A stretch of 64,000 bases of DNA. It comes from Leptolyngbya sp. CCY15150. Its GTDB lineage: Bacteria > Cyanobacteriota > Cyanobacteriia > RECH01. This document shows, piece by piece, positions 28,238-29,867 of the stretch. Below the pieces are notes generated by a model. The model worked only from the letters and a program-made list of their open reading frames with translations. It did no database searches and was not told the DNA's origin. Position 1 is the stretch's first letter, and every line of letters begins with the position of its first letter. The translations under genes and the position numbers were made by a program. The DNA lies in contig NZ_JACSWB010000207.1 of the NCBI RefSeq assembly GCF_016888135.1, forward strand, positions 186,001-250,000, read 5' to 3'.

Positions 28238-28350
28238 GGGTTGGTCTGGCAATGCATGTCTGTGGGCTAGGTTTGGGTGGGGAGGATCACGAGCGATCGC
28301 TCCATGGGAGACTCATCGTTCCCGATCACCCTTGCTCATAGTGACGTTCT

Positions 28351-28385
28351 CCCGACGCTGACCCTACGGGTACAGCGCGGGCTTC
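28351..28385 (-). repeat. 3' hairpin of the TnpB element (probable omega-RNA stem)
   Basis: Just after the tnpB stop, CGCTG-ACCC-TAC-GGGT-A-CAGCG forms a hairpin flanked by CCCGA and CGGG. In the IS200/IS605 family the RNA guide of TnpB is made from the tnpB 3' end and this right end, with the guide segment just beyond, here toward 28340 and lower. Confidence 0.7.
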
Positions 28386-29622
28386 ACTGGATCGCTCCAG
28401 CGACTACCTGCTTCGTTCGGTCTTGTCTAGGCAAAGCCCCCGACAGAACCCGTCCACAGGCGATTTCATCAGCCGTGAGACCCACGACCGAGAGACCACG
28501 ATTGCGAATGACTTGAGCGCTGGCAACATCTCTGGGTTTGATAGAACCGCATTCACTGCAACGGTGGATGCGGTCTTTCAGGTCTTTGCGGACTTCAGCA
28601 CCGCAGTCAGGACATTCTTGACTGGTGCCTCTAGGGTTGACCTTGCCGTAGTAGACCCCACGTTTCCAGCAAACCCACGGTAGCACGATGTTGACGAACT
28701 GACCCAGGCCAGCATCCATCATATGTTTGCCAAGGAAGCCCTTGGCGAGTGTCCTGAAGTCCAAGTCTTCAACGGATATCATCCCGGCTTGGTCGCAGAG
28801 ATGATGAGCCAACTTGAACTGCCAATCCAGACGGTAACTCGCAATATTTTCGTGAACTCGACCGATCCGCTTAATGAGCTTGAGCCAGTTTTTCGACCCC
28901 TTCTGTTTCCCGTTCAGTCTACGTTGCAGCGATTTCAGCTTGCGGTGCAGCTTATTAAAGAAACGAGGACGAGAAACCTGCTTACCATCAGAGGTGGATA
29001 GGAAATACTCCAGACCCACATCCAACCCCAAGGCATGACCCTCTGGCGGAATGTCAGGTACATCCACCTCAGCCTTCAGCGTCAGCATGACGTACCAGCC
29101 GGAATGTTTCCGCACGACCCGAACGGCTTTTAGGGTAAAACCTTCGGGAATGGGGCGATGTAGGTTGATCAGCACTAGACCGATTTTCGGTAGTTTGATG
29201 GTGTTGCTATCAATCGCCTCACCCTTCATCTGCGGAAACAGAAACGACCGCATCTGACCAAATTTCTTGAACCGAGGGAACCCAGTTCGCTTTTGGTGGA
29301 ATGCGGCAAAGGCGGCGTCAACTCTTCCAATCACATCTTGAAGCACTTGAGAATAAACCGCTTTGAGTTCAGGGTTCGTCTTCTTAGCTTCAGTTAACGC
29401 CTTCTTCTGGCGGTAGTAATCGGGATAAGGAGTGTCGGCTGGGATGATGTACTCCTTCTGGAGACTGCAGGCATTGACCGGGCACTTTCTACTGTTGATC
29501 CAGTCTTTGCGCTCTCCGACCGCGTAGTTATAGACCCTGCGGCAAGTCTCCAGCCAATTCAGCATCTGGAGTTCTTGTTCAAGATCTGGGTAAATTCGGT
29601 ATGAGTAGGTCAATACAAGCAT
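28384..29622 (-). CDS. tnpB: TnpB-type RNA-guided nuclease (IS200/IS605 family OrfB)
   Basis: 412 residues, apparently intact. TnpB proteins are RNA-guided DNA nucleases, ancestors of Cas12. All three RuvC catalytic acids are visible: Asp in GLDVGLEYF near residue 202, Glu in ISVEDLDF near 288 and Asp in KPRDVASAQVI near 365. A zinc ribbon CPDCG ... CSECG lies between the last two (about 341 and 357). The N-terminal WED-like part begins MLVLTYSYRIYP. ATG at 29622. No Y1 transposase (TnpA) gene is nearby, so the element is the IS1341-like, TnpB-only kind. It sits between bioY and lspA with related hairpins on both sides. Confidence 0.93.
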   Translation of the reverse strand: MLVLTYSYRIYPDLEQELQMLNWLETCRRVYNYAVGERKDWINSRKCPVNACSLQKEYIIPADTPYPDYYRQKKALTEAKKTNPELKAVYSQVLQDVIGRVDAAFAAFHQKRTGFPRFKKFGQMRSFLFPQMKGEAIDSNTIKLPKIGLVLINLHRPIPEGFTLKAVRVVRKHSGWYVMLTLKAEVDVPDIPPEGHALGLDVGLEYFLSTSDGKQVSRPRFFNKLHRKLKSLQRRLNGKQKGSKNWLKLIKRIGRVHENIASYRLDWQFKLAHHLCDQAGMISVEDLDFRTLAKGFLGKHMMDAGLGQFVNIVLPWVCWKRGVYYGKVNPRGTSQECPDCGAEVRKDLKDRIHRCSECGSIKPRDVASAQVIRNRGLSVVGLTADEIACGRVLSGALPRQDRTKQVVAGAIQ

Positions 29623-29716
29623 ATTTCTACTATAACTTAGGGAAGGCAGTAATGCTCCCTAGAAATAGCTAACAGAGTTTGGCGACTCCGTTCCACTCCA
29701 TCGCCTTGGCTTTCAT

Positions 29717-29752
29717 CCCGACACTTACGCTTTGCGTAGAGTGCGGGGCTTC
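29717..29752. repeat. Second copy of the TnpB-element hairpin
   Basis: CACT-TACGC-TTT-GCGTA-G-AGTG forms a hairpin whose flanks (CCCGA before, CGGGGCTTC after) match the hairpin at 28351-28385 in the same orientation, and the similarity extends outward (TTTCATCCCGAC against GTTCTCCCGAC). It is either the left end of this element or the right-end relic of another copy. Confidence 0.7.
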
Positions 29753-29867
29753 CCGCCGAATTGCTAAAGATAAATGGGGATCAATGGATCGCTCGGGGCA
29801 GAATTAGCAGGCGATCGCCCTGGTCAAACGGTTACGCTTGCTCGTCTGTGAGTCAACGATCTCAGTA

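What the first reader, a model, noticed from the sequence alone, without database searches (positions are those of the whole stretch)
28340..29760. TnpB locus with two related hairpins in the same orientation
Seen: an intact tnpB with all three RuvC acids and a zinc ribbon, a hairpin touching its stop codon, and a second, clearly related hairpin 95 bp upstream of its start, same orientation and similar flanks. No TnpA gene. Known: IS200/IS605 TnpB uses an omega-RNA made from the tnpB 3' end and right-end hairpin. Inference: either the upstream hairpin is the element's left end, or it is a leftover omega-RNA end from a second copy. The latter would be a solo guide-RNA source that this TnpB could use.
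Basis: partly seen in the sequence, partly recalled or inferred. Interest (0 to 1): 0.62.

Follow-up and report, generated by a model that had tools for sequence, protein, structure and literature searches.

The report
Ordinary TnpB transposon with both ends
This is a small "jumping gene" of a common family (IS200/IS605) that carries only the RNA-guided DNA cutter TnpB; the second hairpin that looked like a possible extra guide RNA is its left end, as shown by a sister species that lacks the whole 1,423-base insert.

Summary
In detail: an intact minus-strand tnpB (28384-29622) lies between two related hairpins in the same orientation, IPR 28351-28381 and IPL 29717-29747. Their similarity is above chance. 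The question of the upstream hairpin is settled. A same-genus genome (G002) carries the empty site: its flanks align to the window up to 29764 on one side and from 28340 on the other, with no target duplication. The insert is 28341-29763 (1,423 bp), CTTTAG|CAATTC...AACGTCAC|TATGAG, and the upstream hairpin is its left end (LE). Relatives keep the layout: LE hairpin region before tnpB, TTTAG or TTAAC left flank, right end finishing in GTCAC. A covariance model of the guide RNA, trained without the window, scores the right end at 88.8 bits but the left end only as a bare 31-nt hairpin, 17.7 bits. The LE is not an omega-RNA. The genome has no cognate TnpA, only two RAYT-like proteins. The solo-guide idea fails here, but five omega-RNA-like right-end relics without tnpB lie elsewhere in the genome; the one tested is not better conserved than its surroundings. 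A new member of a known kind.

The parts
28341..29763 (-). whole inserted element, 1,423 bp, inserted 3' of CTTTAG, no target-site duplication
   Evidence: alignment to the empty site in sister genome G002 (L037), flanks 87-88% identical on both sides
29764..29768 (-). TTTAG, the target/TAM motif retained in the left flank
   Evidence: TTTAG or GTTAG at the same junction in 5 relatives with the same kind of LE; TTAAC in 9 relatives of a sister subgroup
29717..29747 (-). left-end hairpin (IPL), the 'upstream hairpin' of the finding
   Evidence: 17.7-bit partial match to the omega-RNA model, hairpin only; alignment to RE
29681..29705 (-). possible second left-end hairpin (5 bp stem)
   Evidence: read from sequence; relatives have a clear hairpin at the equivalent place; a second LE hairpin is described for IS608, ISDra2 and IS605 (PMC5934647)
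29629..29634 (-). TATAGT, candidate -10 box 6 nt from the tnpB ATG
   Evidence: direct reading; the sigma-70 scan did not report it, so weak
28384..29622 (-). tnpB, 412 aa RNA-guided nuclease with intact RuvC triad and zinc ribbon
28341..28449 (-). omega-RNA scaffold (3' end of tnpB plus right end)
   Evidence: 88.8 bits, E 1.3e-20, full length to a model built from 19 relatives without the window
28385..28402 (-). GNRA-loop hairpin of the omega-RNA, overlapping the tnpB stop
   Evidence: the homologous stem is kept with both-side changes in 19 relatives; fold of the window
28351..28381 (-). right-end hairpin (IPR)
28321..28340 (-). predicted guide segment TATGAGCAAGGGTGATCGGG (host flank next to the right end)
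   Evidence: position set by the empty site; guide role inferred from ISDra2 reRNA (PMC8612924)

Best explanation
A TnpB-only member of the IS200/IS605 family sits between lspA and bioY of a cyanobacterium (host group inferred from its relatives) and is absent from this site in the sister species G002. Both hairpins are the subterminal palindromes of the element: IPL at the left end, IPR at the right end. They are alike and in the same orientation because the same single-strand (Y1) transposase has to bind both. Shown: the exact ends, a single-copy insert, no duplication, an intact tnpB, a right end that fits the omega-RNA of relatives, no cognate TnpA in the assembly. Inferred: the tnpB mRNA 3' end is processed into an omega-RNA ending in about 16-20 nt of host flank (TATGAGCAAGGGTGATCGGG); TnpB with this guide would cut the re-joined empty site behind TTTAG and so favour keeping the element; movement would now need a TnpA in trans.
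For: Empty site with both flanks contiguous in G002. LE at a near-constant distance upstream of tnpB in relatives (tip to start 141-144 nt in the nearest three, up to 171 nt), each after TTTAG/GTTAG or TTAAC. Omega-RNA model trained on other genomes hits the right end in full and the left end only as the bare hairpin. tnpB intact with RuvC acids. Relatives at 80-89% identity sit in other surroundings in Nodosilinea and Phormidium MAGs, so the element type has been mobile. Two relatives at 54% have an adjacent divergent TnpA. Like palindromes at both ends, insertion 3' of a tetra- or pentanucleotide and no duplication are known traits of the family (PMC7290912, PMC8612924, PMC5934647).
Against: No RNA data, so omega-RNA expression and processing are not shown. 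No TnpA that could move it was found, so present mobility is unproven. The sister's empty site reads TCTAG where the window has TTTAG (one substitution), so the exact target at insertion is inferred. Only one genome gives the empty site; in G001 the contig ends inside bioY. Loss from G002 by exact excision, rather than gain here, is not excluded.
Confidence: 0.95

Rival explanations
1. The upstream hairpin is a leftover right end (omega-RNA) of a second copy and serves as a solo guide source for this TnpB.
For: The hairpin resembles the right-end hairpin and has the same orientation. Five orphan omega-RNA-like right ends exist elsewhere in the genome.
Against: The hairpin lies inside one insert whose far boundary is 16 nt beyond it. 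It lacks the GNRA hairpin, scaffold and GTCAC end. Relatives carry a like hairpin at a like distance upstream of their tnpB.
Confidence: 0.02
2. The element has been domesticated by the host (for example as an RNA-guided regulator) and is no longer a transposon.
For: No TnpA in the genome; single copy.
Against: RuvC acids are intact, unlike nuclease-dead regulators. The sister genomes lack it, so there is no sign of long retention. The predicted guide has no second match with 3 or fewer mismatches in its first 16 nt in the window (the rest of the genome was not scanned for this).
Confidence: 0.03

Closest known systems
ISDra2 (IS200/IS605, Deinococcus radiodurans)
   Same: TnpB with aligned RuvC and zinc-ribbon residues; LE and RE palindromes; insertion 3' of a short TAM without duplication; guide RNA from the tnpB 3' end plus right end and flank (PMC8612924)
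   Different: no tnpA gene in the element here; TAM TTTAG inferred instead of TTGAT; TnpB only distantly similar (phmmer E 1.3e-27)
IS608 (Helicobacter pylori)
   Same: like-sequence hairpins at both ends, and a second hairpin at the left end (PMC5934647, PMC7290912)
   Different: no tnpA here; other target (TTAC in IS608)
TnpB-only cyanobacterial IS200/IS605 elements (IS1341-like layout, e.g. L102, L107, L067)
   Same: LE hairpin, GNRA hairpin, right-end hairpin and GTCAC end in the same order; TTTAG left flank in the nearest subgroup
   Different: 48-67% protein identity; the nearest (L058, L092) at 80-89% are cut by contig ends

Membership tests
IS200/IS605 family (TnpB-only) | subterminal hairpins at both ends, same orientation, close to the tips | tested here: met
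   IPL starts 16 nt from the left tip, IPR ends 10 nt from the right tip
IS200/IS605 family (TnpB-only) | insertion 3' of a short fixed sequence, no target-site duplication | tested here: met
   empty site; TTTAG/GTTAG or TTAAC left flanks in relatives
IS200/IS605 family (full, autonomous form) | Y1 (HUH) transposase TnpA in the element | tested here: not met
   none in the element; the genome has only two RAYT-like Y1 proteins. So it is not an autonomous IS605; isolated-tnpB members are an accepted layout of the family (PMC8612924), and two relatives of this TnpB have an adjacent TnpA
TnpB RNA-guided nuclease | RuvC D/E/D and zinc ribbon intact | tested here: met
TnpB RNA-guided nuclease | omega-RNA at the tnpB 3' end and right end | tested here: met
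   structure model from 19 relatives hits at 88.8 bits; expression not testable here
TnpB RNA-guided nuclease | RNA-guided cleavage next to the TAM | not testable with these tools
   needs biochemistry
solo omega-RNA (for the upstream hairpin) | scaffold plus GNRA hairpin plus terminal hairpin plus GTCAC followed by a guide | tested here: not met
   only the terminal hairpin matches, 17.7 bits

The most novel reading that the evidence does not exclude
The orphan omega-RNA-like right ends found elsewhere in this genome and in its sisters (for example upstream of the citrate synthase gene in three species) are still transcribed and guide this TnpB, or the other TnpBs of the genome, in trans.
Probability: 0.07. 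Interest if true: 0.5.

Novelty: new member of a known kind. Interest (0 to 1): 0.15.

Why it matters
It removes a candidate for a solo guide RNA and replaces it with an exactly bounded IS200/IS605 element with an inferred TAM (TTTAG) and a predicted guide, which makes its TnpB directly testable. The omega-RNA model also exposes orphan right ends that persist in a genus, a modest resource for asking whether such relics are ever used.

Tried and rejected
Rfam scan of the window: no hits; of 18 relative loci: only a tmRNA and a cobalamin riboswitch. Plasmid search with the element: no match. Search for further copies of LE or RE in the genome by DNA similarity: only short matches that read as chance on inspection of the best, so the element is single copy in the assembly. 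Omega-RNA identity of the LE: rejected. Constraint on an orphan omega-RNA (L153, upstream of citrate synthase): 83-89% three-way identity, no higher than nearby sequence, so no sign of special selection. A first motif search for TnpA in relatives used too strict a pattern and found none; loosened, it found two. The pairing test on the second LE hairpin chose loops for pairing beforehand, so its shuffle control is biased and is not used as evidence.

Full report
What was checked. The minus-strand ORF 28384-29622 encodes a 412-aa TnpB with the HTH, OrfB and zinc-ribbon domains. Its best natural solved relative is ISDra2 TnpB (8bf8). The alignment places the RuvC acids at D201, E285 and D365, and the zinc cysteines at 337, 340, 355 and 358. 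Two hairpins flank it in the same orientation: 28351-28381 and 29717-29747. Their similarity is real: the left end is the best match to the right end in the whole window outside the right end itself, and no shuffle of 5,000 reached it.

Ends of the element. LspA and BioY flank the gene. In a genome of the same genus (G002) these two genes lie about 300 bp apart. Its sequence aligns at 87-88% to the window on both sides of a clean gap...CCCCATTTATCTTTAG | [1,423 bp] | TATGAGCAAGGG.... The junctions leave no room for sliding and no duplicated bases, so the insert is 28341-29763. The upstream hairpin starts 16 nt inside the left tip and the downstream one stops 10 nt inside the right tip. This is the left-end and right-end anatomy described for IS200/IS605 elements, in which the transposase binds a hairpin at each end; in IS608 the two hairpins have the same sequence (PMC7290912; PMC5934647). 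Sister genomes G001-G003 hold no close TnpB, although G001 is incomplete at this site.

Relatives. About 20 cyanobacterial relatives at 48-89% identity show the same order: a left flank ending in TTTAG or GTTAG (window plus L092, L102, L067, L068, L047) or TTAAC (nine others), a LE hairpin with the left tip 141-171 nt before the tnpB start, tnpB, a GNRA-loop hairpin, a right-end hairpin, and GTCAC at the tip (not every locus holds both ends). TTTAG is therefore the inferred TAM of this TnpB. Two more distant relatives (L110, L112) have an adjacent divergent TnpA. The window's genome has only two Y1 proteins, both of the RAYT type by length and motif, so the element depends on a TnpA in trans or is stranded.

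Is the left hairpin a guide RNA? A covariance model was built from the right ends of 19 relatives, without the window; 14 of its 20 pairs show changes on both sides. It finds the window's right end at full length with 88.8 bits. At the left end it finds only the 31-nt hairpin with 17.7 bits, even with filters off. The GNRA hairpin, the scaffold and the GTCAC tip are absent. The left hairpin is thus a transposase-type end, not an omega-RNA. Whether it is ever transcribed cannot be tested here.

Orphan omega-RNA ends elsewhere. The same model found seven further full-length matches in the genome. Two (L151, L152) are right ends of the genome's other tnpB elements, cut by contig ends. Five (L153-L157) have no tnpB beside them, apart from a 31-residue C-terminal remnant at L157. 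L157, 73 kb before the window on the same contig, looks most like this element's right end and is decayed. Sister genomes have such orphans too. L153, upstream of a citrate synthase gene (named from its sequence, not searched), is at the same place in all three species, and L156 in two. The L153 orphan is not better conserved than its surroundings, which fits a relic.

How it most likely works. By analogy with ISDra2 (PMC8612924), the tnpB transcript would be processed into an RNA that ends in about 16-20 nt of host flank, TATGAGCAAGGGTGATCGGG. TnpB would cut the restored empty site behind TTTAG and so favour keeping the element. The ends, the intact gene and the RNA fold are shown; expression, cleavage and movement are inferred.

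Verdict. A well-bounded, ordinary TnpB-only IS200/IS605 insertion: a new member of a known kind, low interest.

Noticed in passing
L153 (G000:C146:18896-19005), L154 (C278:127360), L155 (C157:27820), L156 (C217:124614), L157 (C207:113054-113159): Omega-RNA-like right ends without an adjacent tnpB; L153 is about 35 nt upstream of a citrate synthase gene and at the same place in three species, L156 in two.
   Followed up: partly
upstream regions of L047, L052, L055, L057, L061, L062, L063, L067 and others; window 29681-29705 weakly: A hairpin between the LE hairpin and the tnpB promoter with a (T/C)TCGATG loop like a tRNA T-loop and stems that differ between copies; a second LE hairpin is known in IS608, ISDra2 and IS605, but this loop is not noted in what I read.
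   Followed up: partly
window 29638-29661: Inverted repeat TAGGGA-N12-TCCCTA just upstream of the candidate -10 of tnpB; L047 and L102 have a similar one, other relatives a TACCA...TGGTA one: possible operator.
   Followed up: no
L151/L152 with L039/L040 (G000:C208, C209, C239, C240): Two near-identical copies of a second TnpB element (about 61% identical protein), broken by contig ends; right end finishes in GTCAA.
   Followed up: partly
L005, L006: Two RAYT-like Y1 transposases of about 190 aa in the genome.
   Followed up: no
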